64,000 nucleotides of DNA from Tubulanus polymorphus (taxonomy: Eukaryota > Nemertea > Palaeonemertea > Tubulaniformes > Tubulanidae): contig NW_027437448.1 of the NCBI RefSeq assembly GCF_964204645.1, forward strand, positions 1 through 64,000. The letters run 5' to 3'. The notes beneath the pieces were generated by a model, which saw only the letters and a list, made by a program, of their open reading frames with translations, was not told where the DNA came from and did no database searches. A program made the position numbers and the translations under genes. Below, one piece after another: positions 31,065 to 55,741 of the stretch. Position 1 is the first letter of the stretch, and every line of letters begins with the position of its first letter.

Positions 31065-32700
31065 ATGACCACGAAAAATAAATACCCGCGAAATTAACAA
31101 ATATAAGTGTCTGTTGTAAATAAATGATTATCGATGTAAATAAATGAATTTAAGTTACACGTAATTCGTTTCTTGTTGATTCTTCTTTAAGGTTAGTTAT
31201 GTATTTTTCTCAGGGATTTTAAGCATTGTACAACTACCAAAATTACTTACAAATCAAAAATGTGCAAAATTTAGCACAGAAAAAACATTGATTTATTCTG
31301 TTAAATTGATGAGCTTGAAGTGGGTTTTGCTAAAAACACAATACAATATACAGTTTACTTAAAAAGAAATATGGAAATATCGTTTGAAAGGACAAGAAGA
31401 TTCATAGTTTATTGATGATAGGTGCCACAGTGATCCGTATTGTGCTTAATGAGGAAATATCTTTTACATACTATCTAAATAATGCGAAACTTTATTAGTT
31501 CACAAAAATTCCGCTATGGTTATTCATAGGGGCAGCACTGAACGGTTGATATTTGATACAGCCTCGCTAGTCTACTGTGGCATGCAAGGAAAACATACAT
31601 TCAAAAGTCACTTTTTGCGGCCAGAACTCGAAAGCGTAAAGCATCGGTGCCAGGCACGCCGGTGGGCCCAATCCGCAGAGTGATCTATCATATTTCTGAA
31701 TAGACTTAATACGCATTGAATCATCGGATTTCACGATCTAATCAGATCACGGCTGTTGGAGTAGTATTCAGGGAACCGCTTGAATCGAGGAACCGGTAGA
31801 TGGCGGGTCAATCGCTCATTCAATAGATGGCGTTCCTTTCATCAGTAGGAGCAATGGCTGCCAATCGAACTGTAAATATCGAAAAAATGCACTCAAAAAA
31901 TGATGATAGGATGAGCTTAGGCCTTAATTTCAAGCTAGATTTTTATGCTTCCACCGTGCTCGAATTTAGGGGATCCAGAAGGGAGGTTTTACCTGGATCA
32001 AAGTTCCGTGACGAATGAGGTTGTGTAACAACGCGCAAAATCATGCGGAAATCTTTGCTGCATGAATTGAATGTACCGTACTAATTACACTTACAGCGCC
32101 CTAGGCTACAAGCCATGGATGAATCAAATTGTCTTAATTTGGACAAAATTCTATATTCGGCCTATCCCAGTTGGTTTTAGCAAGGTTCCACTGATTGATT
32201 TATTCTCTTGAACTTTGAAACATGCCATAGGAGCCCTAAATCAATTTGGTCTTAATTTGATAGTACCGATACCAAAGTCGTCATTGAATCAATTTCTTTC
32301 AATCTGAATCAGAGCAGAGAATACTTAATGAACTATGCCTAAATCAATTTTAACAATTTGTTCACGTGCCCAACGTTTTAGATTAATCTCAAATCATCAA
32401 AAATATGGTTTATAAGCATGGAAACAGGAAACATCTCAAGAATTTCAAACCTTTTCTCTTCAACATGAGAAAATGAAGACTTTTTGATAATCCTTCAATG
32501 CCATGTGAAAAATCAATGGATATAAAATGATGGTAGGCCTATATTGAGACTGCACAGTTTCACGGGTGGTATTTAATTAAGACCAAATTTGAGGTATGTG
32601 TTGAAAAGATTAAGCAAAATATCCCCAAAAAATTGGGTGCTGATCAGGCCAAATATGAAGGCACTTTGGGTCTTTGAGGGGGTCCCTGGACTCGGGGCCA
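31065..32700. other. ING3 – satellite interval
   Basis: Holds the ING3 3' UTR (AATAAA near 31078 and 31120), a small inverted-repeat element (31423–31582) and no recognised exon. A possible first exon for the downstream USP gene is ATG at 31827 to 31871 before GTAAAT (15 codons, phase 0, as the next exon needs). This is weak: no domain supports it. Confidence 0.4.
31423..31582. mobile_element. MITE-like element with TGCCACAGT ends, copy 1
   Basis: 160 bp bounded by TGCCACAGT and ACTGTGGCA. The interior (AAATTCCGCTATGGTTATTC, GGCAGCACTGAACGGTTGA, CCTCGCTAGTCTACTGTGGC) matches the reverse complement of 62110–62225. Confidence 0.7.
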
Positions 32701-32725
32701 AGAATAGTCCCCAGGGTTGTATTGT

Positions 32726-35700
32726 AAAGCCACCAGGAGTCCATTTACCTGTTAGGGGGGCCGGGGCCAAGACTCATCGGGCAAATGTGATGAGGGTTTG
32801 GTTAATCGTTAAGGGGTACACCCTGCAGGTGCTTGTTAAATTTAGCACTAATCAAACCACAGGTAAAGCCACCAGGAGTCCATTTACCTGTTAGGGGGGT
32901 CCCTGGGCCCAGGGCCAAGACTCATCGGGTAAATGTGATGAGGGTTTGGTTAATCGTTAAGGGGTGCACCGTGCAGGTGCCTGTTGAATGTAGCACCAAT
33001 CGGACCACAGGTAAAGCCACCAGGAGTCCATTTACCTGTTAGGGCGGTCCCTGGGCCCAGGGCCAAGACTCATCGGGCAAATGTGATGAGGGTTTGGTTA
33101 ATCGTTAAGGGGTACACCCTGCAGGTGCTTGTTAAATATAGCACTAATCGGACCACAGGTAAAGCCACCAGGAGTCCATTTACCTGTTAGGGGGGGTCCC
33201 TGGGCCCGGGGCCAAGACTCATCGGGCAAATGTGATGAGGGTTTGGTTAATCGTTAAGGGGTACACCCTGCAGGTGCTTGTTAAATTTAGCACTAATCGG
33301 ACCACAGGTAAAGCCACCAGGAGTCCATTTACCTGTTAGGGGGGTCCCTTGGCCCGGGGCCAAGACTCATCGGGCAAATGTGATGAGAGTTTGGTTAATC
33401 GTTAAGGGGTACACCCTGCAGGTGCTTGTTAAATTTAATCGGACCACAGGTAAAGCCACCAGGAGTCCATTTACCTGTTAGGGGGGTCCCTTGGCCCGGG
33501 GCCAAGGCTCATCGGGCAAATGTGATGAGGGTTTGGTTAATCGTTAAGGGGTACACCCTGCAGGTGCTTGTTAAATTTAGCACTAATCGGACCACAGGTA
33601 AAGCCACCAGGAGTCCATTTACCTGTTAGGGGGGTCCCTGGGCCCGGGGCCAAGACTCATCGGGCAAATGTGATGAGGGTTTGGTGAATCGTTAAGGGGT
33701 ACACCCTGCAGGTGCTTGTTAAATTAAGCACTAATCGGACCACAGGTAAAGCCACCAGGAGTCCATTTACCTGTTAGGGGGGTCCCTTGGCCCGGGGCCA
33801 AGGCTCATCGGGCAAAAGTGATGAGGGTTTGGTTAATCGTTAAGGGGTACACCCTGCAGGTGCTTGTTAAATTTAGCACCAATCGGACCACAGGTAAAGC
33901 CACCAGGAGTCCATTTACCTGTTAGGGGGGGTCCCTTGGCCCGGGGCCAAGGCTCATCGGGCAAATGTGATGAGGGTTTGGTTAATCGTTAAGGGGTACA
34001 CCCTGCAGGTGCTTGTTAAATTTAGCACTAATCGGACCACAGGTAAAGCCACCAGGAGTCCATTTACCTGTTAGGGGGGTCCCTGGGCCCGGGGCCAAGA
34101 CTCATCGGGCAAATGTGATGAGGGTTTGGTTAATCGTTAAGGGGTACACCCTGCAGGTGCTTGTTAAATAAAGCACTAATCGGACCACAGGTCAAGCCAC
34201 CAGGAGTCCATTTACCTGTTAGGGGTCCCTTGGCCCAGGGCCAAGGCTCATCGGGCAAATGTGATGAGGGTTTGGTTAATCGTTAAGGGGTACACCCTGC
34301 AGGTGCTTGTTAAATTTAGCACTAATCGGACCACAGGTAAAGCCACCAGGAGTCCATTTACCTGTTAGGGGGGGTCCCTTGGCCCGGGGCAAAGACTCAT
34401 CGGGCAAATGTGATGAGGGTTTGGTTAATCGTTAAGGGGTACACCCTGCAGGTGCTTGTTAAATTAAGCACTAATCGGACCACAGGTAAAGCCACCAGGA
34501 GTCCATTTACCTGTTAGGGGGGTCCCTTGGCCCGGGGCCAAGGCTCATCGGGCAAATGTGATGAGGGTTTGGTTAATCGTTAAGGGGTACACCCTGCAGG
34601 TGCTTGTTAAATTTAGCACTAATCGGACCACAGGTAAAGCCACCAGGAGTCCATTTACCTGTTAGGGGGGTCCCTGGGCCCGGGGCCAAGACTCATCGGG
34701 CAAATGTGATGAGGGTTTGGTTAATCGTTAAGGGGTACACCCTGCAGGTGCTTGTTAAATTTAGCACTAATCGGACCACAGGTAAAGCCACCAGGAGTCC
34801 ATTTACCTGTTAGGAGGGTCCCTTGGCCCGGGGCCAAGGCTCATCGGGCAAATGTGATGAGGGTTTGGTTAATCGTTAAGGGGTACACCCTGCAGGTGCT
34901 TGTTAAATTTAGCACTAATCGGACCACAGGTAAAGCCACCAGGAGTCCATTTACCTGTTAGGGGGGTCCCTGGGCCCGGGGCCAAGACTCATCGGGCAAA
35001 TGTGATGAGGGTTTGGTTAATCGTTAAGGGGTACACCCTGCAGGTGCTTGTTAAATTTAGCACTAATCGGACCACAGGTAAAGCCACCAGGAGTCCATTT
35101 ACCTGTTAGGGGGGTCCCTTGGCCCGGGGCCAAGGCTCATCGGGCAAATGTGATGAGGGTTTGGTTAATCGTTAAGGGGTACACCCTGCAGGTGCTTGTT
35201 AAATTTAGCACTAATCGGACCACAGGTAAAGCCACCAGGAGTCCATTTACCTGTTAGGGGGGTCCCTTGGCCTGGGGCCAAGGCTCATCGGGCAAATGTG
35301 ATGAGGGTTTGGTTAATCGTTAAGGGGTACACCCTGCAGGTGCTTGTTAAATTTAGCACTAATCGGACCACAGGTAAAGCCACCAGGAGTCCATTTACCT
35401 GTTAGGGGGGTCCCTGGGCCCGGGGCCAAGACTCATCGGGCAAATGTGATGAGGGTTTGGTTAATCGTTAAGGGGTACACCCTGCAGGTGCTTGTTAAAT
35501 TTAGCACTAATCGGACCACAGGTAAAGCCACTAGGAGTCCATTTACTTGTTAGGGGGGGTCCCTGGGCCAAGACTCATCGGGCAAATGTGATGAGGGTTT
35601 GGTTAATCGTTAAAAGGTACACCGTGCAGGTGCCTGTTGAATTTAGCACCAGTCGGACCACAGGTAAAGCCACTAGGAGTCCATTTACTTGGTAGGGGCC

Positions 35701-35775
35701 AAGACTCATCGGGCAAATGTGATGAGGGTTTGGTTAATCGTTAAAAGGTACACCCTGCAGGTGCTTGTTGAATTT
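32726..35775. repeat. 148 bp satellite, ~21 copies
   Basis: Units of about 148 bp, mostly >95% alike, with cores GTAAAGCCACCAGGAGTCCA, TGTGATGAGGGTTTGGTTAA and TACACCCTGCAGGTGCTTGT. A 4 bp deletion near 33430 and several G-run length changes mark individual copies. It lies directly upstream of the first recognised USP exon. Open frames of 67–69 aa repeat with the unit and are artefacts. An inverted partial array recurs at 39535–39781. Confidence 0.97.
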
Positions 35776-35822
35776 TGTGCCGATACAAGGTAGTTAATCT
35801 GTAATTGATTGTTTCATTGTAG

Positions 35823-38800
35823 GTGCTTCCTCCAGGTCTTAGAAACCCTGGTAATGTCTGTTTCCTCAATTCTGTCGTGCAATGTCTTCGGGCCACCCGA
35901 GGCTTTTTACATCGCTTTTTTAAGAAAGCATGTTCGCAGCCCTGTAGGCCTACCTGCAATGCATGTAACATTCAGCAATCGTTACTTGGCAACACTGAGC
36001 CACTTATTGATAACATAAAAGGTATGTATAATTTTCATTGCAGTTTTTAAATGACAGACTTGTATGATAGATGAAACAACAATTTTTGATTGAAATGGTT
36101 TTAACTTGCAGCGTTGATATTTGACAATTGTTGTTTCACTGTCGAGTTAGAATATCTACTTAATTCACAGTGGATAAGTACATGCCTATTGTCAGACAGA
36201 CCATCAAATTTGTGTCTGAATGAAAGGTCAAGGCAACGTGGGCTCCAAAAGCACAAGATAAATCCATGGGCACAAGATTATCAGTAGGTGAAGGAACTAC
36301 ATTACAGAGCCGCAGCTTTCGATGTTCCTGAGATCGTACATAGTCTCTATGGGCATAGAAAATCTCATAGTGTTCATACGATTATTCTTGATGAAAAGAA
36401 ACGTGGGTTTTTTGCTAGCATTGAAGTGCATGTAGCAATTTTGCGATCTTTATCAGAAAGCATTGTTATTGAATATGACTCCCTATGTACTTTTGTAATT
36501 ATATTTTCCAGACTTCGTGGTCGATGCAGAAAAGCACCAACAGCAAGATGTGATGGAATTTTTTCATGGCGTGTGTTTGAAAGTCAAAGAAAAGTAATTA
36601 TTTTGTTCTCATCTTTTTAGCCAACTTGGTACCCACTTGGTACCATCCCCCCTGGTAGGGCTTGAAATCTGATGGCATTGATTGAGACTTGCCACTTCAT
36701 GAAACCTTACCATACTAGACAGAGAATGCAGCTTAGAAGATGCAATTATAAGCCAATCATAAATCCTGATTAATTTAAGCCCAGGTTTTTCCATTGATAG
36801 TTTATCTGTGAAATTAGTCTCGGTGATTATTCAATCAATCTGATTGGTGCCGCAAGTTTTCAAACCTGCATCTAGTGTGGCAGAGTTTCGTGCCGCTGCT
36901 AAGTCTAGCAATGCCATCAAGTTCTTATCCCTGCCAGGGGGATAACTTAGGATTTACATCCCACTTCTTTCATCATCTGTAGACAGAATCTAGTTTTCAA
37001 TACGCTTTGATTATGACCTTTCCAAGTCATAGGTTTGTGCATATATGTTCACCAGAGGGCATTGAATTTTGAAATTGTCAGATTGTTGACCAGTTCAGAT
37101 GGCGCGGTGTCCTTGGACCTCAGACCGGCCTGGTCAGAATCAAGATGGCCGACTGGTGCTGGCACTGTATCGTGGTTCAGTTCATTTTTCTAATCAAGAC
37201 AAAATCTACTCCTACCTTTAATTGCATTCCTGTTTCGTTATCTGATATAAGCATTTCATAAGGCTGTGGTAAACCTCTTGGCGCATTATTATTATTATTT
37301 CAAACCACCTTCCAAGTGGGCATGGTATCCCTATGGACCCCTAGTCAACTTTTTACCCTAAGAGGTATGGGTATGATTTCCATATTTTACTTTTTCATAC
37401 TGGTATATTTTGTGATCAATCTATTCTGTATTTGCTGTCACCTAGCGTACTATATTTTCAGTTTTCACTTTTGTTCTCTCTAGCTTCACTTGTGTATTTA
37501 TTTGCAGAATGCCGCTTTGTTTTGAATTTGTGCTGAAAACAACAGGTAGGTCGATGTGACTTTTCACAGAAAATTGCTGATATTTTCCTAATCAATTTTT
37601 GTAATGATGTAGCTATCCATTTGCAGACACTTGCCTGGAATGTGGAAAAGAGAGCATACGTCAGTCGGAACATTTGAATATGTCTTGTGCCATCGAGGTG
37701 AATATTAAGAATGTATTATATGCTAGTATTAGAAATTGCTCCACTGTTGTTTGATTGTATACAACCATGGAAGATGAACCGTGTCGACCCCTGATAGATT
37801 CAAACAGCTCATATCAGTGACTTGGAATTAATTTTGACCAGTTCCAAGATATACGGATATTCTGATTATGTGAAAAATTGGCCTTTAGTGGGTGTGGCAG
37901 GAGGTGGTATATCGCGGGTTTGGTTCACTGCAAGTTTTTTTAGTAAAATAACAATAATTACGCAGAAGCTCATCTGCAATTTGACTTATAATAGTGGTAG
38001 GGCTACAAGATCTGTTAATGCAAATATGCTTATGGTACCTAGAACACTCATTAGGTCTGGTGATCATGTCTTTAAATCTTATGGACCTCGTTTATGGAAT
38101 ACACTTCCTGTGGATATGAGAACAATTGTTACATTGAGACATATAAAAACTTATTTAAGAATTGTCTGTTTAAAAGGGCCTTCCTCGACCAAGAGATAGC
38201 ACAGTTAGCAAGTTTTTCAGTATAGTGCTTTACAAATTACTTGTGCTATGTCAATGACAAACCTATAATTAGATTCATCTTTGAATTCATTTTGTAGTCA
38301 GAAGAACGGAAAGCATTCCAGACCATTCAGGAATGCGTAACTAATTTCTTCAGTCTAGAGGAGGTGACGGTTCGGTGTTCAGAGTAAGATATCAAAGATT
38401 AAGTACCAGTATACTCTCTTTCAGTCCACTTCTAATACAAATGATGTAACCTTGTTATTCTTATAGTATTAACAACTATAAGTTTGGTTGTGTGCACTGT
38501 ATATGTATAACCTACCGGTAAATATCATCAGATATAATACATGTCCCCACTTAATCCATCAACAGGTGTCCGTGTGAACAAGCTTTTCGCTTTCAAGAAC
38601 TTGTGAATGCACCTGATTTCATTGTCATTGATTTGAAAAGGTTAGCCATGTTATTTGTATTTTTTGAGCTGTTTCACATCGTAAATTTGATAATATCTAT
38701 AATGGAAATATAATGATAATATATATAATATATGAACTTTCTAATTGAAATACTTCTAATGGATTTCATATAGATATCGTTGGTTCGGCAATGCAGGGAA

Positions 38801-41800
38801 ACTCATGCACCACGTAAACATTGGAAAGAATTTAGATATTCTTGTTGGAAATGATCAGGTAATCTTCTACTATTTCACTTGGAAGTTGTTTAAAACAATG
38901 TAAAACGCTTGCATGACATTGTGGCATGCTCTAGGGGAAATTTTTTCCCAGTTACGTTTTAACTCCTGACACTATTAATCATTATAATCAGTATTACTCA
39001 ATAGCGTATTTTATTATCATGATCATTTGAAGTGCTTTGATCAAAGTAAATCTTGAGTGTCAAGAATCAGTCATCATGTTTTTTGTATGTGTGATTTCAG
39101 TATGTTTATGAGTTATATGCTGTCATTACTCATCGAGGTGTCGAGGTAACCAGTGGGCACTATGTTGCATATCTGAAAGTTATGAATGGTTGGGCTCTTG
39201 CCGATGATGATAATGTAAGTTTAGCAAATCAATAATGAAATGAAAGCTAATTTATGATCAAAGTATGATTTGGGTCGTTGAATTCTAATGCAGTTCATGT
39301 TAATACAAATGTATTCCAAAACCTGTCATCAATTAAATCTATTGATATATAATGAGATTAGGCTATACATTATTTTTTCATCTGTCAGGTTTCCAGTATG
39401 AGAGCTCCAATCTTTCAAGGAGGCGAGCCGTATGTTTGCTTTTATGAAAAGAAAATTCACTCTGTAAGTACAATTTGCTTATTCATATTGATACACGGAT
39501 ATATGTATCAATAACCACAATCAATTGCAAAATTGTAACTCCTGGTGGCTTTACCTGTGGTCCGATTAGTGCTAAATTTAACAAGCACCTGCAGGGTGTA
39601 CCCCTTAACAATTAACCAAGCCCTCATCACATTTGCCCGATGAGTCTTGGCCTTGGGCCCAGGGACCCCCCTAACAGGTAAATGGACTCCTGGTGGCTTT
39701 ACCTGGGGTCCGATTAGTGCTAAATTTAACAAGCACCTGCAGGGTGTACCCCTCAACGATTAACCAAACCCTCATCACATTTGATTAGTTTTTAGTATAT
39801 GGTCACCAGGGGACATTGAATATTGGAGTATTCTGATTGTTGAGCAGCATTTCAAACCACATCCCATGGTGTCCCTGGATAGTTTAATATTGACAAGTTC
39901 GATCCCTACGTTATCTTGACTTAAGCACGTACAGAAGATTCCTATCAGTTTAATCAATCACATCAGTTTAATCAAAAGACCTTGCCTACAAGGCTGTCAA
40001 ATTAGTATTATCATGTATAGTATATATTTAGCCCACATTTGATTTTTGAAGTGTTAGAAATTTTCTTATCATTATTACTATAAGATATATCATTTATTAT
40101 AGAGGTTTTGATTCGCAATTATTGTGCAAAGCTTGGAGCACAGGTTGACATGACCACAGTTTTTTATGTATTGCTCAGCCTTTTTTTAAATGTCTTTCAA
40201 TTCATATATTGCAGGTTAATACATCAGAAATGCCTCAAACTGTAAGTAGAAATAATTTATTTCTTATTCCTGAATTGTACCTCATTGGGTTTTGAACCAA
40301 CTTTTGACGTATGTGGTCCTGAGCTTAATTTCTATATATAAACGTCTGAATCAGACAGTGATTATGTATATTTGTGACAATTTGCTGAAATCTAATTTAC
40401 CGGTAGTTAACTCAACCTATGTTCAACGGAGGAATGATAAATTGCTGATCTTAGTTAAGATTCAAATAGATGATTTGGGGAATTAATACACTTATCATAT
40501 CGAAATTTGTATGGGAAAATTTAGAGGTTTAACAAGTTTTGAACCTATGAGTTTTAGAAGTTTTGTAGAAAAAGATTTTTAATTAATCATTGTTTAAAGT
40601 TTGGCCCATCACCATAAGAAAAATTTGGTCGATCGGACTCAAGTTGGCAGTCCTATGACCTTTTTAGTGCCCAAAAAGGTCAATTTTGGCACAAATTCTG
40701 AGTCCTGTAGCTTCTTACTGGTTTGCCATTTCTCATTGCAATTTGTGATGGGTATTCTTTGGACCCCTAGTTTGTGTGGCGAAAATGGACCGTGTTTAAC
40801 ATCTCCGGTTCGTTTTCGTTACAACATCTCATCATCCTTTCCTCCGATATCTCCAGGTGGAGCGATTTCATATATATAAATATGTTTTGTATTGTGTAAA
40901 TTTGTATCTGTGTACTACTGTCAATTTTTCGGGCGTCTCGTTACGGTCTATCGCGTTCGGGTTGGGGGTTTTGGTCGGTTTTTGTCGGGAAATAGCACGA
41001 TCACATCTTTTTATTCGGCTTTTATCATAAATTCGCGCTATGACATTCTGGTTACTTACCGGCAGTCTATTCCTTTGTATTCGCTTTTCAATTTTGAACT
41101 GCCGTTTTGTGATGTCATAATCCCACTTTCATCATATTTCCGTAGTTTGATTTGTTCTCATCGGTTTCTCGCTCGCGAGTTGAGCATTGTCGCACTGCTA
41201 GGCGGCTCACTATTATTGCGCGCGGATATCAAACTCGGGTTTGATTTTCAAATTCCGCTTTTAACCTTTCAAACTTATTCTTTTGGCATTTTTATCGCGT
41301 ATATCGTGATATCACTAATGGCCAATGAGCGCCCCCGGATTTCTATAAAAGGCGGGTCGTTCGAGCACAGTCATTCTGATTTTCGAATCACTCGCACGTA
41401 CTTATAGTATCAGCGAACAACTTACAGCAATTAAATTCTTAATCAAATATAACTATTAAAATGTAAGCGATAAGAGACGCACCCTCTCTATCCCGCCTTC
41501 GGGTTGGATAGGGTCATCTTGTCCAACCCGAAGGATGAGATATATTCACTTTTAGATCGTCCGGCCAAGTTAGATGCTGACCGAGTTTGATTTTGGCCAA
41601 GTTTGATTCCGGCCCACTTTGATTTCAACCAAGTTTGATTTTTTCGGTCTCCTAGTCTAGCAAAATCTACCGACCGAGAGCGTCACTATGATGGACAGTC
41701 ATGATCAATTTTGTTTAGTTTAGTCGAGCCGACTTTTGTTCATACGTAGAATTATTTTCCGGGCGTATTGATCGTCACATCATTTTCAACTACGACTGTA

Positions 41801-44800
41801 TTGATCCACTCTCGGTCGAGCGATTTTGCTCCGATTGTATATAAAATATATATGTTTCTACATTTGAGCGCGATTGAATAATGATTTGAGATCGTCGCTA
41901 TAATTTTCAAATCATCTCTCACCGTACGCCCGAATAAGGTGACTCTAACGTAATTTCGTGACTTCGTATAATTTGACGTTCCTGACGCGAGACCGTACGG
42001 AGATGCACCCGAGGTGTAAACTTTATGAACTGGAGAAATGATTAAATTCAGGAGTTCAACTCTTGACATGATTAATCTTATACAAGTCTTACATTTTCGT
42101 CTTTTCTGAACAAGGAGAGGAGTTCCACCGCTATTTTCTGTCTCAGTGCCAATTATTATTATTCGTCTTAATGAGAGGACCAGTTCGATCGGGGACGTAT
42201 CGGCAGTAGTTACATGAAGACCATCAATCGAGGATTCGAACCCCCAATCTTTGTATCGACTGACGGCCTTTATCCAGGGGAAGTCATGACAAAGTGTCAT
42301 ACGGAGCGAAGGTAGATGTTGGGAGAACTAGGTTCGATCGCGTGCGAAATCCTGGCCAGGTAGTCGCCTACGAGGATGCTGAGCCCTGATCATGGAATGA
42401 GAAGACTGAATATTTTTATTTGATTATAATTTCGACAAGAACTGATATCTTTTCCCTGAGGAGGAATTACTTCCCCCAATATTTTCGCATAACCCGATTA
42501 TATTGTCTCAGGGCGAACCCTAGTAGCAAACGCCTATTGCATCTATTATATACGTAAACATATAAAGACCCGCTACCCAGGAGAGATACGCTACATTTGC
42601 TATTCTACCAGTTTGGATGGATTACCGAATAGACTAGTACCGTTATAGGCCGACTCTACTGTATATCACTTGGGGCGAGACCGCCACCTCTACTGTATAT
42701 CACTTTGGGGTGAGAGGACGTTACCAGAATTATCCAACTCAAAACAGAACAAACTATATTTTGAAGAAGAATTCACGATTGATTTTTATTAATTATCTTA
42801 TGTTGCGATACATCATAGGACGATTCACACTGTAGAGCATCAAACATTCGCTTTAACAACTTAAATATCGGTATAAACGGAAGATGCTACATATTCACAT
42901 AGTTTCAAGCTGCATATTTACAATTTCATATTATAATATTCATTGGCCCTGTTACTTATTTGATTGGTATTTTTTTTTCATTTGGTATAACAATCTCATC
43001 ACACCTTCTGGAGACAAAACAGGGGCTTTGATTTTGAAATCAAAGATTCACATATAGTTGTGTGATTGGTGGTCAAATAAACAGAGTTTTCTTGTGGAAA
43101 TTTTATGTTTTGGTAGTTTTCCCTGTATGAATAGTTGTTTTTAAACCCAACTTCGTACAATACCATTATAGTTTATCAATGTTAGCTATGCATTTTGTTA
43201 TTTTAGATAAATACATCTCGGGGACCATCAGCTCTCAGCGACGATGTGTATGAGATCATGCTTTCTGTGCTAAGTGGAAAGAAGATGCTCTCATCATATC
43301 AAGTTACTTCCGGTGACAAAAAATATGATGCTGTGCGCAAAAATGCTGCAAATAAGTTATCTTCAAAAGCTTACATATGTCAAAAAGTTAACAACAAAAA
43401 TGAAATTATATTCCTAAAAACGAGAAAAATTATTCCAAAATCATCAGCCATTGCCTCAATTATTGATCAGTACCACACGAGCATGGCTGGATCAGGTTCG
43501 TCCAAATTAGTAGGAGCAATCAGCAGCAGTTTCCATGGTATATCAAAGCAAACTATCCAAGATCATCTTAATTCGAAGCCAACGCACACGATACGGAATC
43601 CATTATTTACGAACAAGCCACCTATTAAGAATATAACAGCATCTGCTCCGATGAGCCGGGTACAAATAGATTTAGTACTAATGGAAGAAGTTGAGAACGA
43701 AGGATCTACGTACAGATATGTGTGCAGTGTGATTGACGTATTTAGTAGGTTCCTTTGGTTACGCCCAATTCAGAACAAAACATCGAAAACGGTGGCCGAA
43801 GTGACAAAAAATATATTCTGTGAGTTCGGCAACCCGCAATACGTACAGACCGATAATGGAACGGAATTCAAAGGAGAGTTTGATTCATTTTTGAAGACTG
43901 CAAAAATAAAGCATATATTTGGTTCGCCTAGGCATCCCCAATCACAAGGAAAAGTAATGATTATATTTTGATTGAAAAAATTGGGAAGTAGTTTTTGTAT
44001 TACAAATTTAACAATGTTTTTACCGTTCTTTACAGTCCGAAAGATCACATGGGAGCTGGAAGAAGATGCTTCGGTACCTACTCGGGAGAGATGATGAGAC
44101 AAATTGGGTTGCGCACATTCCTGAGCTCCAGAGAATTATGAATCAACGATCACATAAAGCATTTTGTATGTAATTAGGGTATTCTGCCTACCTTTGTTAG
44201 AAACCTTATTGTTATCCTAGGTATCATAATGATAGCCCTACTCCTCTTTTTCAGCCGATAAGATGACTCCTTTCGAAGTATTTTTTGCCAGGAAGCACAA
44301 TCAAGGTGAAGGCCTTCAAAATGGTCAAATGACGAAAGCAGACTCCGTAGATGAAGAAAATACTTCAGATGTGGCTTCTTCAAATGTGAATACAGTAAAA
44401 CCCCTTGCATGAATACCTCCCTATAGTGAATACTTCCTATAATGAACACCCTATGTGCGGTCCCAAAACCTAAAATACATCCCATGTCACATCATTACCT
44501 AACCCTCCCCATAGTGAACACTTTGCTTGGTCCCGATGGCGTTCACTATACAGAGGCTTTACTCTACTTCAGATGTGACTAGTAATAATACATGTTGATG
44601 ATGTGTTATATAACACATGAAACTTTTGTACTTTAAAATTTCAAGCTCACTGCCTGGGAGAATGAATCCGCTTCAAAGCGAAAAGCAGCTGAAGCACTTT
44701 CAACTGTATATAATGCTGCAATGGTCAAGGGACATAAGAATAGATACCCTTGTTCCCAGTATGAACCTGGACACCGTGTTTTGGTGAATGTAAGTACTTG

Positions 44801-45731
44801 TTAAATCTGCATTCTTTCATCCAGTGTGGAAATAAAGCTTGAAATGCTTTTATCTTCCATTTATACACATTGTGTATTCAATAAACATTACTGGCTTAGG
44901 GGTATTGCCATCTGTCAGGAAGAGAATGCTCCTGCTCTAAAGTCTACTTCTGTTTTGAACCAATTTTCTGATTACATGGTAGGTGAATAATGGATGGAAG
45001 ATGTGCTGTATTGTTTTTACTCGTGTAGATTATCCAAGATAGCCGCCACAGCTATATTTATAGAGCCTTCATAGTGTAGCTCTAGTTACATTTTATGTAC
45101 AATTATTAAAGAATTTACCAATTTTCAACCCCCTCCTTATATTTTACAAACTTCCAAAAAATCTGCTTCCCCTAGTACGTGCAATGAGTTCTAAATCAGT
45201 TTATCATTATCAGGCAACAGCAATGAAAAAGACGAAACTTTATAGTAAGACTGGGCCAAAGTGCCATAAAGGAGTCATCCTAAAGGTCGGTAAAATGGGA
45301 AGAAAGTACCAAGTCCTGGTCAAAGATTCTCTGTTGTGGGTGGATATTAGTATGCTGACATCCCTGACAAGGATGAAGCAAAAGAAGCTTTTAGGAACTA
45401 AATGTAAGTACTAACGGAATTAACTGTTTCCAAAAGTGCACTGATTCATTAGAATTATTCACACTTGCATAAAAGAGGTTTTACTGTAATTACTGATGAA
45501 TGATGTTGTTTTATTCTTATTCTATGACAGCTCCTCTAAATAGATATTGTATGTGTGTTTCCAAGTGCAAGAAGACAAGGGCACCGAAGTGTGAAAACTA
45601 TATGCACAGAGACTGCTGCAAGAGTGCAGGAAAAAAGTGTGCTCTTCACAATATCCTGTAAGTAATCATCCGATTGGTTGATTTGTAGATAGATGAAATT
45701 TATCTGAAATTTATCTCAAGTGAGTGGTGAG

Positions 45732-45775
<44 letters not shown>

Positions 45776-48621
45776 TGTATCTGCACATATTCGTACACAT
45801 AGATTTTATGATGGCTTATATGATGGATTTAATGGTATATACAACTATGAAAGTGTATTTAATTGAGAATGGTTTTCCATTTTAGGGGTGATGAAACCAT
45901 TTCTACTGAAACCAGGCACATTATGGATCGCGTTGTTGGTGAGGTAGAGCATTTTTTTGTGAATTCTGTCAAATCAATCCTATCGGATCTTTTCATTTGA
46001 AATCTTCATTTAGAGTACCAGATCTATTTAAGGACTTGAGTTGTTGTGTTAATGAATATACATAATAGGAGGCTAAACTTTGCCATAATTTTTCAGTTTA
46101 AGATAGTTGCTAATTCGTAAGTATTTTTTGGCTCACACCAAATCATGTGTATACAAGTGACGCATGCACATGGTTTCTGTTTTCACACCTTTTAATTTAA
46201 TGTGAGTGGTTTAAATTAATTCGAAAATAACAGTTGGTATTATTTGTCAAAGGGTATATATATATATATTTACATCTTGGTGTATGTGCACATATTCTGC
46301 CTTTTATAACACGCTATCAATGTGAAACACATGTATTTACTTTAATCTCTGCAGGTGCTTTAGCGTATGTGTCTGTGTGTCTGGAAGACACATGGACCAA
46401 TACACTATTGATATCTTAACAAATCATATATCATATTCTTTGATTATCCCGTGATCAGTTTACGGTCTAGGTATTGTGTCATTGCTTTTTAGCCAACTAG
46501 TCCCAGCGGGCTATGAAGGTTCAGTTTGTCGGTCCGTAGACAGAATCCAGTTATTTAAGGAAGTTTTACAGATGCTGCGGTAGACAGTTGATAGTTAAGC
46601 ACTTCAAACCAGCTCCCAAGTGGGCAAAATGGGCCTGCACCCCTAGTCTTAGTGTATTTTTCTAATTCTGCTACACTATGCTTTTACGCTATGTATGTAG
46701 TGAAATAATCATGTAATATCCATAAAACCCCTGTGTGATCACATTAATTGTATCGTTTTTCTTTAACATTCCAGTTGAATGCAGACACTCATCATATTGA
46801 TCAATGTGCGCAACAAATATCTGATAAGATTAAAGCTAGTAACAGGTAAGCCATACTATAAACTATAACTGTTATGGTTTGCAATTTCCACACGTTAATT
46901 CATACCAATATCTCATTCCTGAATATTTCAGCTCTGATCAGGGTGACAGCAACGCTCACAAGCAGGGCGTGGAAGGAATGATGACTCTTATTAAGACAGT
47001 GAAGTGAGTAGTCATGATGAATGTACAGTCCACCCCGATATCCCGCCCTCCCCGCCTACTGCCAGGTTTTCTCCATGTACATCTCAAAACACCTCCGATA
47101 TACCGCCATACTCTCTATAGTGTCATACTCTCTATACCGCCAAAATCGTTCTGCACTGATGTGGGCGCAGTATACCAGGGGTTGACATTAGTGGTAAAGC
47201 AAAATCATTTTGATATTAGACACTGGTATCAAACTGCCTCAAGCTTTATTGTATTTAATCCGAATGGTCTAAGAGCAGTCAATGCTAAAGTATGAATCAT
47301 TTTTACTTACAGAGATGTTTCGCAGCTAGAAGATAAGCAATTAACTTATTTGGTTATGCAGAATGAGTGCTATTTGAGGAATATTTTCCAGGGAAAGGTA
47401 GTGTACTTAAAATAATCATATATACCAGTCATTAGCGATTAATTTTGTGTTCAGGTGTCGTACAAAACTATCTCTCTAAGGTATTATATTAGTCTTCCAT
47501 GACTGATATGTATCACAGTATTCATTACTTGTAGTCAACAGTAATGCTCATTTAATATATATATACTTTTAGACTAAATGTCGACGCCATGAAGACTACA
47601 AGAATGGCGGAAAGAGCAGGCGTAAGTTGAAAATTAAGTACAATAACCAGTAGCTAATACCCTGGTAACCAAGTGTTTATGTGCCTTGCTTACTGTATTT
47701 CAGGTAACTTGACCTTGCAAGTACCAATCACTTTGTACAGTGATGCGCAATGTGATGTAATAATAAAGGGATTAATGGACATGTTTTGCCCAACTGATAC
47801 GAAGGTTTGTATATACCGGTAAAGCTTTAAGTAATTTACCCTAGTATATCAAGTATTGCGTATGTAACCCACTTAAGTGAGCCATTTCGGTGTAGACGAA
47901 ATATTTTGGGTTGTTTTAAATATGCTTCAATGCTTGTCTCGCTATGTTCACCAGGGGTTGTTTAATAGTAGATGTTCTATCCTCCCCTGGCAGGGTTCGT
48001 ACCCGATGGCATTGGCACAAAACCCTGCCACATTAGACCGAGTGCGCAGCTACCAGGCAGCTTAGATGATGACATTATCATTATTAGCAAATCAGATATC
48101 CCGGGTTTTCCCATTCTTTGTTGTTCCGTGAAATTTACCTCCGCGATTCTACAGCAAGCAATCTGATTGGTGCCGTAAGTTTTCGCGTGGCAAAGCTGCA
48201 CACCCGGTCAAGTGTGGCAGGGGTTTGTGCCGTGTGGCTGAGTGAAGCGATGCCATCGGGTTCGATTCCCTGCTGTGGGAGGATGTAGATGTACCTGCAT
48301 ATATTGTTATATTTTGTATGTACTGCATTTTTAATGTCATTGATTCCTTAATTTGTTCACAGGGGGCATTGAATATTGAAATTGTCTGATTGCTAAGCAT
48401 TTCAGCAAATGTGCATGTTGTCTCTTAACACTTTGTTAGCCCGACCTCACCAAACTTTTGAATTATATTTTCAGTACATGGATTATGTGTTTCGAGTTTT
48501 GTTGCCAGAAACACTGATAAAGATCTATATGGAGGTCCATCAAACATCACATGTACTAGCAGAAGAACGCTTGGCCGATGCTCTTTTGGGAAGTGAAAGT
48601 GATGAAGACACTGAAAGCTGA
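35823..48621 (+). CDS. ubiquitin-specific protease fused to Ginger/KRBA2-type integrase
   Basis: 23 exons in one continuous frame, 970 codons plus stop, 5' end not found. Exons: 35823–36021, 36512–36593, 37508–37545, 37627–37697, 38298–38383, 38566–38640, 38774–38858, 39101–39214, 39389–39463, 40215–40241, 43207–43953, 44036–44165, 44255–44394, 44646–44789, 45214–45403, 45531–45657, 45886–45943, 46775–46845, 46932–47003, 47313–47397, 47573–47621, 47704–47804, 48475–48621. The first nine encode a C19 USP: Cys box GLRNPGNVCFLNSVVQCL, QQQDVMEFF, two Cys pairs (CLEC, CSECPC), FIVIDLKR, His box TSGHYVAYLK and ALADDDN. Exon 11 encodes an rve integrase: QIDLV, 60 residues, QTDNGTEF, 34 residues, SERSH (D,D,E intact). 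Then come an SH3/chromo-like segment, a Cys-rich segment in exon 16 and an acidic C-terminus. Two separate genes remain possible. Confidence 0.82.
36835..36960 (+). mobile_element. tRNA-derived SINE-like repeat, copy 1
   Basis: Shares TGATTGGTGCCGCAAGTTTT, GTGTGGCAG…TTTCGTGCCG and AATGCCATC…CCCTGCC with the copy at 48160–48295. The B-box region is decayed here. Confidence 0.65.
37985..38200 (+). pseudogene. non-LTR retrotransposon fragment (RT C-terminus)
   Basis: Reads SVNANMLMVPRTLIRSGDHV then FKSYGPRLWNTLPVDMRTI and IKTYL. This is the typical C-terminal end of CR1/RTE-type reverse transcriptases (VPRT…GDxxFxxxGPxLWNSLPxxxR…FKxxL). Only this tail remains, in a USP-gene intron between the exons ending at 37697 and starting at 38298. 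Confidence 0.75.
39535..39781 (-). repeat. 148 bp satellite, inverted, ~1.7 copies
   Basis: Reverse-complement copies of the 32726–35775 unit (TGGACTCCTGGTGGCTTTAC, GGGTGTACCCCTTAACAATT) in the intron between the USP exons at 39389 and 40215. They abut a SINE-like tail beginning TCACCAGGGGACATTGAATA. Confidence 0.9.
41340..41463 (+). promoter_or_regulatory. candidate internal promoter and 5' UTR exon
   Basis: TATAAAAGGCGGG (TATA at about 41345) is followed some 30 bp later by TCATTCT, an initiator-like site. After that comes an AT-rich leader ending in AAAAT|GTAAGC at about 41463, a good donor. Spliced to the acceptor at 43206, the first in-frame ATG would be 43258, before the integrase. It could equally be the promoter of an inserted LTR. 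Confidence 0.4.
41496..41534. other. perfect 13 bp hairpin
   Basis: Arms CCTTCGGGTTGGA and TCCAACCCGAAGG with a 13 nt loop, 30 bp beyond the candidate donor of the internal promoter exon. Confidence 0.6.
44393..44573. mobile_element. pogo/Tigger-style MITE
   Basis: Left end CAGTAAAACCCCTT, right end GAGGCTTTACTCTA; internal direct copies of ATAGTGAAYACTT. The left end supplies the GTAAAA donor used in the model for the exon ending at 44394. Confidence 0.55.
46485..46650 (+). mobile_element. SINE-like fragment
   Basis: Holds CAGCGGGCTATGAAGGTTCA and CTTCAAACCAGCTCCCAAGT then GGGCAAAATGGGCCTGCACC and CCTAGTC. These match tails at 37290–37345 (CCTTCCAAGTGGGCATGGTA, GGACCCCTAGTC) and 40742–40770. 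Related pieces with CACCAGGGGGCATTGAATAT occur at about 37045, 39798 and 48357. Confidence 0.55.
47960..48065 (-). mobile_element. tRNA-derived SINE-like repeat, inverted copy
   Basis: Reverse complement reads CTGCCAGGGGA-flanked tRNA-like sequence with AATGCCATCGGGTACGAACC and GTGGCAGGGTTTTGTGCC. It faces the direct copy 100 bp away, making a potential foldback in the last intron of the USP–integrase gene. Confidence 0.65.
48160..48295 (+). mobile_element. tRNA-derived SINE-like repeat
   Basis: TGTGGCTGAGTGAAGCGATG (A-box-like) is followed by GCCATCGGGTTCGATTCCCT (B box), a typical RNA polymerase III internal promoter of a tRNA-derived SINE. Body similar to 36835–36960. Confidence 0.75.
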
Positions 48622-50726
48622 TCAATTGCCATATCTATAGTCGTTATTACGAGGTTCCACTGTTACATGATTGAAGTGTATGTTCCATCCATGCTTTTCG
48701 TAATTGACTTTGTGTTTTACATAGAGCAAAATATTTTTCATATACGTGGCAATGTACGTTGTATATTATAATTCATTGATACTGAAACAAAGTAATTTTG
48801 TATTGGTATATTAAGTATGTTGAACTGTTCTGACAATCACATATCACTGATGTTTTTCATATTCTTTTTTATTGTTTGGTGAAAACGAAAACATTCAAAT
48901 AATGTATGTAGAGTAGGTATTGGGTTAAGAAAATTTTATCAACAAAACAAACGTCCGTTGTGTTTTGTCTTTTATAAGCTTCGAGAGAACTAAGTATCAG
49001 TGGATAGAAAGAGGTACATGTATATAATATTCCTGTGTATATATTTTTTAATGTCAACGCAGAGGGATGTAAAATTAGAATCTTGTAAAATTGACATGTT
49101 CATTTTAAAAGAGATTATACATATGGTTATTATATTAATTTGGTCCTTTAGATGTAATATGCATTTGTATGTTTACTGATATATTTTATATGATAATAGA
49201 GCATAATTCAATCTTTTATCCTATTTTTATCAAATGTCAAAATGCTCAATAACATATTAAATCAGTTCATACTTATAACTACATATCTAGCTCTGTTTTC
49301 GAATAGATCTGAAGTTAACTAGTCTACATATCATATAACTCAATAAAAAGTCTAATTCATTTAGGCTTAGATGCATGAAATCAAAATATTTGATATGCGT
49401 AGTATGAAAACTTGGGCCTAGTCAAATGTTTACACTAAATTTGGCTAAATGAAATAGATTAAAATACTTACCTGTAAATATCAGCGAATAGAAAGAGTAA
49501 GATATATAAAATTAATGTGTATATGTATCGAGAGTTTTAAAATCTGAATAACTTTCTGAGTCACTGCGACTATATATCTACCCTTGGGCTAGCTGGTGTC
49601 AGATGGCCTAATATTTAATTAAATACAAACTATTCGTGCAATCGATCGCTATTACTCGTCGATTACTGCACGCTATTACTACCTTGTTTGAGTGTATCGT
49701 CAAACCGCCAGATTGTATAATATTGATAATTGATAAGTTTGTTTAATGATATGATAAATATCAATTGAGCAAGATGGTAGACACACAGGTGCTCACAGTA
49801 ATTCACAGTTTTAATTCGACTGATTTTCCTGAAAATTGAGACAAAACAACGTGTTTGCCGATAAATAATCAAAGTAAATTAAAGTCTGCCTTTCCGTCTG
49901 CCATCTAAACTTCGCATCAATGAAAAACTGATATTATCAGATTGACACATGCATTTACACTAAAGAATATATGTGAAATTAAGTGTTGCTAAATATTTGT
50001 AATATGCTCACACTATACATGCTACGTTTCACAAGTACGATCGTCTTTCCAGTATGCATAGCAATTTAGTTATTTTTTGAATTACACTACTTATATTTTC
50101 TAGACATATCATTTGTAGTGCATTTATGAATGACATAAATAAAGGTATTTTGTATTAATTAAGTTTGGTTTCAATTGTTTTTATGCCATTCTTTGTAACA
50201 AGGCTACGTACGTTGCTGACGAGCAAAGAAGATTGCATACAGATCGTTGCAATTCCTAGATACGATTCCTGTCAATTAAGTTCTCTCTATGTTTGTTGTA
50301 AAAAATACGTTCTGGATCTGGAACTTGGCAATAAGCAAATGAAACATGGTGTATAGACTGCCAAAAGAACTATCGTTTCAAGAGCATCGCCATTATGAAT
50401 AATCATCTAGAAATTCGAGGAAAAGCTGTGCGATTTGTTAGGGATAAGTGAATAACTTAAATTTCACAATTTTCAAAGATTGCCCTAGCTACGCTTATAG
50501 GGGTAGGAGATAGAAAATATCTATGCACGTTGTATGTATATTCGAAAGAATACCCACAATGAGCTAGTTTTTTTGTAATTTATACATGAAATATCAAATT
50601 AACATATAACTGAATAGTGCATGGAGATTTGATACACTAGTTTGTTAGTTATTCGAATCAAATGTTTCGTTGAAAGCACTGGCTTAAAATTATGTTTTTG
50701 TTGTTATAATTTTGAATATGAATAAA
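48622..50726. other. 3' flank of the USP–integrase gene
   Basis: AT-rich sequence with no exon, tandem repeat or recognisable element that I can support. Confidence 0.5.
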
Positions 50727-53150
50727 CGGTTGTAGGTAAAAATCCCCTGGGTAAAAATCCCCCAGGTAAAAATCCCCCAGGTAAAAATCCCCTAGGTAAA
50801 AATCCCCAATTATTCAAAGTAGGTAAAAGTCCCCCACCTTTTGAATGTAGTCCAAATTAGATACAATTTTAAGGTCAATTTATTCGTATTAATATATTCT
50901 ATTTATTATTTACCTTATAATTGCGTTACATAGAAATATCATGTATAGAAGTTATCGCATTTCAATGAAAAATACAAAATTAGAAGTTAATTAATTCACA
51001 AAATCGCATCACATTAAAAATTACAAATTGGTTGTTCATTAATACTGTATCGCACAAAATATAAGTTAAAAAGAAAACAATCGCACAGTTCAAACATATT
51101 ATGATTTTAATTTTCAAAAAGCACTCTAAATTAAAAGTTTATTTATAACGCACAGCTTAAATAATATATCACAAGTTTAAAAAGGCTCATCAAATAGGTA
51201 AAAGATATTACATTTTGAAGTTTAAAAAGTATTACAAATTAGAAGTTATTAATTAATGTACAAAATCGCATCACATTGTAAATCACATCGCACAGTACTG
51301 CATCGCGCAAAATATAAGTTAAAAAGAGGTCATCGCACAGTTCAGTTTTATTTTCAAAAAGTACTCCAAGTTAAAAGTTACTTTAGTTAACGTTTATCAA
51401 TTCTAATTTCCAAGCGGAATGTTATGACCCACACCACGCAGGAAATCGGCCATATTCAAATGTCCATCATTGTATTGTCGACACAGTATTTGTAATCGTT
51501 CGTGTAACGGACGATGGATGTTGCTAACCCGTCGTTGTGGAACTCCACCGATGGCGTTTTCCATTATCTTGGTGCTTGTGACACTCTGTTCCATTTGAAT
51601 GGGACGGATGGCGCGCCATATAGAAGGGTGTTTTGTGCCCAATCAAATTGCGGAATCTGTTGTTCCATTCTTCTGAAACATTATTAGTTTTTGGGTCAGA
51701 GTTTAAAGTTGCTCGATTTACGTTCCATCTCTCGGGTGCAAATCTCGGAGCAATTCTCCGTATTATGTGTCGATTCTCTTCTCCGATTCTTCTTTCCCTA
51801 TATGTTCCATTAACATATGTCGCATCGAAGTAGTTAATAAGAGGATCACAACCATCTGAGGCAACATCTCGTAGATGTTGCATTCCCGCCACAACATCCG
51901 CAGTGGGAAGAAATGCCAAACCATCAAGCCCACAGAATAACTTGAAATCGTCCTCATTCTGATACCTGAATACATAAGAGTAAATGAGTCAACAACAATT
52001 TGTACAAAATCATTCAATTATTTTAAAAATTAAAAAAAGGTCATTTTCTTACCGATTTGCCATCCCGAGCTCTTGTATCTTGCGCCAGGTTGATTGTCTT
52101 AGGTGATAAAAACAACCCTGAATCTGCAGTGCATCGCCGAAGACAGCTCTTAACGCGTGATGAACATCTCAAAGTCCACTATAACTGTATCGGGATCAAT
52201 ACCATCGACATTTTCACTGATGGCATTGAACAAATCCTCGTATGTACCTTCTGACTTCCGCTGTAAGAATGTGTACACTAAAGGAACTGTTATATTGTCA
52301 ACCAAAGGAGCATGGATGACATACACCTGAGAAAAAAGTGGTGGTGCCATCGAAAAAGTTCACAAAGGATATTGGTGAGGAATTAAAACTTGAAAGCAGC
52401 AAGCGGAAAACAGTTCGATTTAAATTTGTCGTAATTCAAAGTAAGCATAGGCAAAGAGCTAACGGTTGTAGTTAAAAGCCCCCTCTGTAAAAATCCTCTA
52501 GGTAAAAATCCCCAAATATTCAAAGTAGGTAAAATTCCCCACTTTTCAATGATGTTCAAGAACATTTCAAAGCAAAATGTTTCTGAAATTTTATTCATTT
52601 GCAATGAGATTGAAATATGTTTGAACTGCGCAATGAAATCTTTCGTTGGGGTGAATTAGTTAACTCTTAGAATAAGATAAATTGTTAGAATTAATAAGAA
52701 TAATGAACTTATTATTCTTTATATCGAAAAATTCGAACTGAAATGGTATATTTTTGAAATGTGAAATCGTGTTAACTTGTATTTCAGCTGTGCGATGCCA
52801 TGAGTTAATAGAAATAATGAACGTTTAATTTGAAATACTTTAGATTCAAGCTAGTGCGATAAATTTTAAATGTGCGATGAACCCTTTCATTAACTGCTAT
52901 AACTTAAAGTACTAATTTGGTATTAATGAACTGTTAATTTGTTGTAAGTTTTAATGCAATTAGTGTATACTATAGTTTGTACGCTCGTGATATCCTATGG
53001 TTTTCCACGGTAAAATATAAATAAATTGGATATGTGTATCTGAATTAATTTACCTCAAATTGTATCACTTCATTCAAAAGGAGGGGGATTTTTACCTACT
53101 CTGAAGAATTGGGGATTTTTACCTAGGGGATTTTTACCGCTAACCAGAGC
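50727..53150. mobile_element. MULE (Mutator-like) DNA transposon
   Basis: Left end: five tandem GGTAAAAATCCCC units (50731–50810), then TATTCAAAGTAGGTAAAAGT. Right end (53075–53150): the same motif inverted, GGGGATTTTTACC. A further left-end copy lies inside at 52463–52545, and another left end at 53358–53530 belongs to a second, truncated element. The transposase remnant is on the minus strand at 51403–52350. Confidence 0.8.
51403..52350 (-). pseudogene. MULE transposase, frameshifted
   Basis: Reads VYVIHAPLVDNITVPLVYTF…EGTYEDLFNAISENV…DTVIVDFEM, then a one-base loss near 52163 shifts the frame to GCFYHLRQSTWRKIQELGM. An intron (52052–51966, GTAAGA…TTCAG) joins this to YQNEDDFKLFCGLDGLAFLP, then YFDATYVNGTYR, RWNVNRATLN, TNNVSEEWNNRF. 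A one-base gain near 51640 shifts it again to KHPSIWRAI. The order is that of the MULE transposase domain and its C-terminal extension. With two frameshifts and a truncated 5' end it is not functional. Confidence 0.85.
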
Positions 53151-53357
53151 TTACAAGCCATTATACATTGAACCTTATTAAATCTAGATGACCCCGTAAT
53201 TCCTTCAATTACGTACGTACACAATATGATCACGGAAAGCGTACCAGGTGATAACGAATAATTACTCGGCCACTATATATTGATATTACGAATCGATGTA
53301 TTTAATTCGGTTATCTAAACTCAGTCTACAATTCTTTAAATCACTAGTTAATTAAAA

Positions 53358-53530: not shown

Positions 53531-53568
53531 ACGAGCAATTATCTGAAATTCAAACCATAGAACCACAG

Positions 53569-53732: not shown

Positions 53733-53739
53733 GTGTGCA

Positions 53740-55602: not shown

Positions 55603-55741
55603 GAATCATCATAACCTGGTAACATATTATCTGCCAATCCATTTACTTATAACCCTAGGAGGCACTGGTGGTCGACTCAATACAAAAACAGCAATCTTCC
55701 CTGCTAATAAAAACGTGGACAATACATAAATGTCTATTATG

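What the first reader, a model, noticed from the sequence alone, without database searches (positions are those of the whole stretch)
35823..48621. One continuous frame joins a complete ubiquitin-specific protease to a complete DDE integrase
Seen: 23 exons with GT–AG junctions add up to 971 codons without a phase break. The C19 peptidase motifs (Cys box NVCFLN, His box SGHYVAYL, Asp in ADDD) and the integrase D-60-D-34-E are both intact. Known: Ginger1 DNA transposons and the domesticated KRBA2/GIN genes carry this integrase, and some Ginger elements carry other cysteine proteases. Inference: here a USP-class deubiquitinase has been joined to the integrase, either as an active intron-bearing transposon that deubiquitinates its own factors or as a domesticated host gene. 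A USP partner is, as far as I know, undescribed.
Basis: partly seen in the sequence, partly recalled or inferred. Interest (0 to 1): 0.87.

Follow-up and report, generated by a model that had tools for sequence, protein, structure and literature searches.

The report
Jumping gene carrying a ubiquitin-removing enzyme
A 25-kilobase animal DNA transposon encodes, in one 23-exon reading frame, an intact ubiquitin-removing protease followed by the integrase-type enzyme that would move it, and a second diverged element family in the same genome carries the same pair, so deubiquitination looks like part of the transposon's equipment rather than an accident.

Summary
Twenty-three exons (35823–48621) give 970 codons plus a stop without a phase break. 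Pfam finds UCH (E 2.7e-29) and rve (2.9e-17), with catalytic boxes and D-60-D-34-E intact. It is a DNA transposon, not a host gene: window 31754–57070 (25,317 bp), ~57-bp imperfect terminal inverted repeats (TGTYGG…), 6-bp target duplication CACGGC. Four more copies lie elsewhere: three have different perfect 6-bp duplications, one an imperfect pair. Two of the four carry the USP (one ~99% identical and nearly intact, one decayed). dN/dS window–C3 is 0.39 (p=0.002). A second, diverged family (at least 5 near-identical copies) has a USP with intact Cys box upstream of an integrase with an intact H2C2 finger, so the pairing is not a one-off. A MULE-like transposase in the same genome also sits behind an intact USP. 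Ginger1 membership fails: 6-bp not 4-bp duplications, no H2C2 match, protease N-terminal. The 'promoter' at 41340 lies in a dispersed repeat inside an intron. No RNA could be tested. Verdict: new variant of a known kind (integrase-type transposon plus deubiquitinase); USP partner not found in the literature held.

The parts
31754..57070 (+). The whole transposon (25,317 bp) between its terminal inverted repeats
   Evidence: Both ends found together at five genomic places; collinear copies
31748..31753 (.). Left target-site duplication CACGGC
   Evidence: Identical 6-mer on both sides
57071..57076 (.). Right target-site duplication CACGGC
   Evidence: other copies CACGTC, GACCTG, TACACT, and the imperfect pair GATGGA/GATGTC
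31754..31810 (+). Left terminal inverted repeat, TGTTGGAGTAG...
   Evidence: Aligns with the reverse complement of the right end, score 26 against at most 16 in 2000 shuffles
57016..57070 (-). Right terminal inverted repeat, ...CTACCCCGACA
31827..31871 (+). Candidate first coding exon, MAFLSSVGAMAANRT then donor GTAAAT, phase 0 (inferred)
   Evidence: This peptide start (one or two substitutions) is present in all five copies; no RNA
32757..35698 (+). 148-bp tandem array (20 copies) found only inside the element
35823..39463 (+). Exons 1-9: USP deubiquitinase catalytic domain (residues 1-275), 35823-36021, 36512-36593, 37508-37545, 37627-37697, 38298-38383, 38566-38640, 38774-38858, 39101-39214, 39389-39463
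40215..40241 (+). Exon 10, 27-nt linker exon (VNTSEMPQT)
   Evidence: Phase 0 on both sides
41320..42596 (+). Dispersed repeat inserted in intron 10, with a TATA-like promoter at about 41346; not a part of the coding unit
   Evidence: Many matches elsewhere in the genome, several ending at the same base
43207..44394 (+). Exons 11-13 (43207-43953, 44036-44165, 44255-44394): degenerate zinc-finger region and DDE integrase core, D439-D500-E535
44646..45657 (+). Exons 14-16 (44646-44789, 45214-45403, 45531-45657): region after the core resembling an integrase C-terminal domain (by eye) and a Cys/His cluster
   Evidence: Sequence; no significant Pfam match
45886..48621 (+). Exons 17-23 (45886-45943, 46775-46845, 46932-47003, 47313-47397, 47573-47621, 47704-47804, 48475-48621): C-terminal region and stop
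   Evidence: weak PWP3A-B_C match below cut-off
50730..52361 (.). Stretch missing from the C3 copy, holding an ORF (51524-51919, -) that looks by eye like a MULE transposase fragment; probably a nested insertion
   Evidence: Gap in the window-C3 alignment; ORF without a Pfam match

Best explanation
It is a low-copy DNA transposon bounded by terminal inverted repeats, whose large spliced gene encodes a USP deubiquitinase fused to an integrase-type DDE transposase. Shown by sequence: the mobile unit, its ends and target duplications, the open frame with both catalytic sites intact, several copies, and a second diverged family with the same USP-integrase order. Inferred: the integrase half binds the inverted repeats and performs strand transfer with a 6-bp stagger; the USP half works in the same complex and removes ubiquitin from the transposase and its partners, so that the complex escapes degradation long enough to transpose. 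My estimates: transposon 0.95, one fused protein 0.8, active deubiquitinase 0.75, protection of the transposition complex as the main role 0.45.
For: Open 23-exon frame; UCH and rve over cut-off; five copies sharing both ends, four with perfect and different 6-bp target duplications; catalytic residues kept in the window, C5 and C3 copies and dN/dS 0.39, p=0.0024 for window-C3; all splice sites kept in C5; second USP-integrase family with at least five ~99% identical copies, intact Cys box and intact H2C2; internal promoter explained by a dispersed repeat. Transposon-borne ubiquitin-pathway proteases with similar proposed roles: PMC2836005, PMC9741609.
Against: No RNA or protein evidence; first exon only a candidate; dN/dS of the USP part alone is not significant (0.45, p=0.12); no substrate is shown; ancestry of families A and B not resolved (18% of bootstrap trees).
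Confidence: 0.75

Rival explanations
1. One transposon, two genes: a USP passenger gene and a separate integrase gene lie within the same inverted repeats and act in trans.
For: A 3-kb intron with a TATA-like promoter separates exons 10 and 11; exon 10 is only 27 nt; an in-frame Met lies 17 codons into exon 11.
Against: The frame and phases run on through exons 9-10-11; no stop or clear terminal exon of the USP was found; the promoter lies in a dispersed repeat.
Confidence: 0.18
2. Same fused protein, but the main targets of the USP are chromatin or DNA-repair proteins at the insertion site (histone H2A/H2B, repair factors), helping target access or gap repair.
For: Bao et al. propose action on ubiquitin-regulated repair factors (PMC2836005); the C-terminus has a weak match to the C-terminal domain of PWWP3A/B repair factors (E 1.7e-4, below cut-off).
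Against: No substrate evidence; the PWWP3 match is below the family cut-off.
Confidence: 0.3
3. Domesticated host gene of the GIN1/KRBA2 kind.
For: Many introns and an intact frame, as in GIN genes (PMC2836005).
Against: Terminal inverted repeats, different target duplications and several copies.
Confidence: 0.03
4. Chance composite: a USP gene fragment carried along by the transposon without function.
For: Low copy number; the constraint on the USP part alone is not significant.
Against: Complete USP domain with all catalytic boxes and all splice sites kept in C5; the same pairing in a second diverged family.
Confidence: 0.08

Closest known systems
Ginger1 DNA transposons (Bao et al. 2010, PMC2836005)
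   Same: Integrase-type transposase in one protein with a ubiquitin/SUMO-pathway cysteine protease; inverted repeats with TGTNR ends; introns
   Different: Ginger1: 4-bp CCGG/CCGT duplications, H2C2 finger, OTU or Ulp1 at the C-terminus, 0-4 introns, 2.6-7.1 kb. Here: 6-bp duplications, no H2C2 match, USP at the N-terminus, 22 introns, 25 kb
Ginger2/Tdd
   Same: Integrase-type transposase, TGT ends, inverted repeats of similar length
   Different: 4-5 bp duplications, AT-rich targets, H2C2 present, no protease reported in PMC2836005
IS3EU/GingerRoot (PMC10045372)
   Same: 6-bp duplications, no HHCC motif, present in animals
   Different: Termini TA..TA, only occasionally TG..CA; no USP mentioned; sequences not available to test kinship
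Polinton/Maverick
   Same: 6-bp duplications, integrase without HHCC, large size
   Different: Only rve, UCH and a weak C-terminal match in the gene; no other long ORF outside it, so no sign of a viral gene set; integrase only 26% identical to the Polinton-like ones of this genome
Trichomonas vaginalis XP_001314237.1 (cited in PMC2836005)
   Same: Transposase joined to a C19 (USP-class) peptidase
   Different: Unrelated transposase family (Transposase_11), protist, mentioned there only as a protein
Helitrons with VTD or OTU deubiquitinase domains (PMC9741609)
   Same: Transposon-encoded deubiquitinase, with a proposed role in protecting transposition proteins
   Different: Rolling-circle element and a different deubiquitinase fold family

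Membership tests
TIR DNA transposon | Terminal inverted repeats | tested here: met
   About 57/55 bp imperfect, score 26 against at most 16 in 2000 shuffles
TIR DNA transposon | Target-site duplications of constant length at several insertions | tested here: met
   6/6 bp at four insertions with four different sequences; the fifth is imperfect
USP (peptidase C19, PF00443) | UCH domain over cut-off with Cys, His and Asp boxes | tested here: met
   103 bits against a cut-off of 23.9; boxes intact in three copies
USP (peptidase C19, PF00443) | Cleaves ubiquitin | not testable with these tools
   Needs an assay
rve integrase core (PF00665) | Domain over cut-off and DDE triad | tested here: met
   63.2 bits against 32.6; D439, D500, E535
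Ginger1 | 4-bp CCGG/CCGT target duplication | tested here: not met
   6-bp, not CCGG-type (definition PMC2836005)
Ginger1 | H2C2 zinc finger before the core | tested here: not met
   No Pfam match, while a Gypsy integrase of the same genome gives 54.8 bits; two of four ligand positions replaced by eye against family B
Ginger1 | GPY/F and YPYY motifs | tested here: inconclusive
   Not seen by eye; no model run for them
Ginger1 | C-terminal OTU or Ulp1 protease | tested here: not met
   Pfam finds only an N-terminal UCH
Ginger2/Tdd | 4-5 bp target duplication and H2C2 | tested here: not met
   6 bp; no H2C2
IS3EU/GingerRoot | 6-bp target duplication, no HHCC | tested here: met
   definition PMC10045372
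IS3EU/GingerRoot | TA..TA termini (GingerRoot occasionally TG..CA) | tested here: inconclusive
   TG..CA here
IS3EU/GingerRoot | Transposase clusters with IS3EU/GingerRoot | not testable with these tools
   No reference sequences held
IS481 family | NCBIfam IS481 model over cut-off | tested here: not met
   118 bits against 224, though best of the IS models and above Gypsy (84-94) and Polinton-like (62) controls
Polinton | Other Polinton genes (PolB, ATPase, capsid) in the element | tested here: inconclusive
   No long ORF outside the gene in the element except one short MULE-like fragment; no profile search of all frames was run
GIN1/KRBA2-type domesticated gene | No flanking inverted repeats, unique conserved locus | tested here: not met
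   Inverted repeats and several copies

The most novel reading that the evidence does not exclude
A previously undescribed group of integrase-type DNA transposons armed with USP deubiquitinases, with 6-bp target duplications and heavily intron-split genes, represented by at least two diverged families in one animal genome and paralleled there by a USP next to a MULE-like transposase: USP capture as a recurrent strategy of DNA transposons.
Probability: 0.45. Interest if true: 0.72.

Novelty: new variant of a known kind. Interest (0 to 1): 0.6.

Why it matters
OTU, Ulp1 and VTD proteases are known from several transposon groups, which led to the untested idea that transposons need to manipulate the ubiquitin pathway. 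A USP, the largest deubiquitinase class with many assays and inhibitors, joined to a transposase with both active sites intact makes that idea directly testable by one cysteine mutation. The same pairing in a second diverged family, and a USP next to a MULE-like transposase in the same genome, suggest convergence on deubiquitination. A transposase gene with 22 introns in a 25-kb element is also unusual.

Tried and rejected
Domesticated gene: rejected by inverted repeats, target duplications and copies. Assembly artefact of the small contig C31: rejected, since the same unit lies on large scaffolds C5 and C3 with other flanks and other target duplications. Separate integrase promoter at 41340: lies in a dispersed repeat. 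IS481-derived integrase: the IS481 model fits best (118 bits against 84-94 for Gypsy and 62 for Polinton-like integrases of the same genome) but far below its cut-off (224); the small trees put the integrase weakly beside Gypsy (82/82) or left it unplaced; family B with an intact H2C2 speaks rather for a Ginger/Gypsy-like origin with a later decayed finger. Sister relation of families A and B: nearest by path but in only 18% of bootstrap trees, so one old fusion or two captures is open. Viral contigs: no relative. C8:990-997k first looked like a contiguous exon 10-11 copy, but is a satellite of rearranged exon-11 and exon-9 pieces. Structure prediction was not run: the protein is spliced and no deep alignment of its own was available.

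Full report
What was claimed and whether it is there. Rebuilding the exons gives AG/GT at every junction and 970 codons plus a stop. Pfam assigns residues 5-269 to UCH/USP (E 2.7e-29, profile 2-254 of 254) and 430-528 to the rve integrase core (2.9e-17), both over the curated cut-offs. The closest solved structures by sequence are USP30, USP8 and USP2 for the first part and foamy-virus, MMTV-type and Ty3 integrases for the second (the naming of MMTV is from my own knowledge of those entries). Cys, His and Asp boxes and D439-60-D500-34-E535 are intact. A candidate (MAFLSSVGAMAANRT, 31827-31871, donor GTAAAT, phase 0) sits just inside the left end of the element, and this peptide start is present, with one or two substitutions, in all five copies; without RNA it stays a candidate.

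It is a transposon. The integrase exon has two close matches elsewhere in the 268-Mb genome of the window. Fetching them showed that window and C5 are collinear from 31.75 to 57.07 kb at about 98-99% identity, and that C3 shares the interior at roughly 89-98% with large insertions. Both end sequences occur together at five places: the window (C31), C5:12.46 Mb, C3:14.42-14.48 Mb, C1:7.63-7.65 Mb and C2:21.88 Mb. The ends are imperfect inverted repeats of about 57 bp beginning TGTYGG (alignment score 26; best of 2000 shuffles 16). The flanking 6-mers match perfectly at four sites and differ between them: CACGGC, CACGTC, GACCTG, TACACT. At C2 they are GATGGA/GATGTC. Element lengths are 25.3 (31754-57070), 26.2, 66.6, 19.0 and 2.0 kb; the coding part of C1 starts inside exon 11, and C2 keeps little but ends and array units. 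The unit is therefore a mobile family with one intact copy (window), one nearly intact (C5, with a stop near the very end), one decayed (C3) and two deletion derivatives.

The reading frame is under constraint. Comparing codons, window-C3 has dN/dS 0.39 (20.5 synonymous and 30.5 replacement differences, p=0.0024) and C5-C3 0.46 (p=0.0096). The USP part alone gives 0.45 for window-C3 but is not significant (p=0.12). In C5 all splice sites are kept. C3 carries frameshifting indels and lost splice sites, so part of its differences are neutral and the ratio is conservative.

One protein or two genes? Exons 9, 10 and 11 join in phase 0 through a 27-nt exon, with a ~3-kb intron before exon 11. That intron holds a TATA-like promoter at about 41346, but the region 41320-42596 is a dispersed repeat found at many other places, several matches ending at the same base. 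It looks like an LTR or another insertion and not like the integrase's own promoter. I favour one fused protein (about 0.8) and cannot exclude two transcripts.

The pairing is not a one-off. Among the UCH matches of the genome was a set of nearly identical, clearly repeated exons. Sequence around one of them (C7:8.537-8.545 Mb) shows a USP exon (GGHYISF...) and, about 5 kb downstream, an rve integrase core with an intact H2C2 finger (rve 38.7 bits and H2C2 30.5 bits, both over cut-off). The integrase core is 39-40% identical to the window's, and the window family gives its best matches outside its own family and close relics. Five places (C7, C1, C5, C4, C11) carry both the USP and the integrase matches, at about 99% DNA identity. 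Its Cys box, read at C4, is GLANYGQSCYMNSVIQS. A small tree of integrases could not decide whether families A (window) and B are sisters (18% of bootstrap trees), so one old fusion or two captures both remain possible. In addition, at C8:9.164-9.180 Mb a USP with intact boxes (NNCSCYMNAVIQSL, VEQQDAEEFF, SGHYTS, SYIVFYEQ) precedes an 846-aa ORF with MULE (22.4 bits) and SWIM (18.6 bits) matches, each just below its cut-off.

Which family is it? Ginger1 is the closest in design (integrase plus ubiquitin/SUMO-pathway protease), but its 4-bp CCGG/CCGT duplication, H2C2 finger and C-terminal OTU/Ulp1 (PMC2836005) are not met here. Ginger2 (4-5 bp, H2C2) fails as well. IS3EU/GingerRoot shares 6-bp duplications and the lack of HHCC (PMC10045372), but termini mostly differ and no sequence was available to test kinship. 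The IS481 profile fits the window integrase better (118 bits) than it fits Gypsy (84-94) or Polinton-like (62) integrases of the same genome, while family B scores 77 and keeps the finger. I leave it as an unplaced integrase-type TIR transposon that works like a Ginger1 but is not one by the tests made.

How it most likely works. Shown: the mobile unit, both active sites, constraint on the frame. From knowledge of the families: integrase-type DDE enzymes cut at TG/CA ends and join them with a fixed stagger, here 6 bp; USPs cleave ubiquitin from proteins. Inferred: fused to the transposase, the USP removes ubiquitin from the transposase and from proteins at the insertion site. Bao et al. proposed that protease domains of transposases act on ubiquitin-regulated repair (PMC2836005), and the VTD study proposed that Helitron deubiquitinases prevent proteasomal degradation of transposition proteins (PMC9741609). 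Which substrate matters most is open; I put 0.45 on stabilising the transposition complex and 0.3 on chromatin or repair targets.

Novelty. Literature searches found OTU, Ulp1 and VTD proteases in transposons, and one mention of a Trichomonas Transposase_11 plus C19 protein, but no USP with an rve integrase. The library lacks most subscription papers and Repbase Reports, so absence there is weak evidence. I rate it a new variant of a known kind, with interest 0.6.

Noticed in passing
L068-L071; G000:C7:8537000-8548399 and copies on C1, C4, C5, C11: Second USP-integrase repeat family (B), at least five ~99% identical copies, with intact USP Cys box and intact H2C2 integrase; its ends were not reached.
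   Followed up: partly
L054/L055 (G000:C8:9164000-9179999, reverse strand): A USP with all boxes intact lies just upstream of an 846-aa MULE/SWIM-like transposase ORF; a similar USP exon is at C9:4388470. A second kind of transposon may carry a USP.
   Followed up: partly
window 32757-35698 and 39538-39783: The 148-bp tandem array was found only inside the five copies of this element (81 matches, none elsewhere), with a piece inverted in intron 9: an element-specific subterminal satellite.
   Followed up: partly
G000:C8:990133-997550 (L050-L052): A satellite with ~1-kb units built from rearranged exon-11 and exon-9 pieces of a relative about 9% diverged from this element.
   Followed up: partly
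window 41320-42596: Dispersed 1.3-kb repeat with a TATA-like promoter inside intron 10, possibly a solo LTR.
   Followed up: partly
window, protein residues 854-955 (exons 19-23): Weak match to the C-terminal domain of the PWWP3A/B DNA-repair factors (E 1.7e-4, 22 bits, below the cut-off of 27).
   Followed up: no
window 44250 and 44480: The window copy lacks about 380 and 308 bp of sequence that C1, C3 and C5 share, the first lying in intron 12 and the second in intron 13, so it carries intron deletions of its own.
   Followed up: partly
window 1-31000 and 58000-64000: Unusually dense minisatellites (57 rows), some inside long ORFs; host-gene remains include an intronless TCP-1/cpn60-type chaperonin at 7058-8773 (-) and an aminomethyltransferase exon at 23978-24373 (-).
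   Followed up: no
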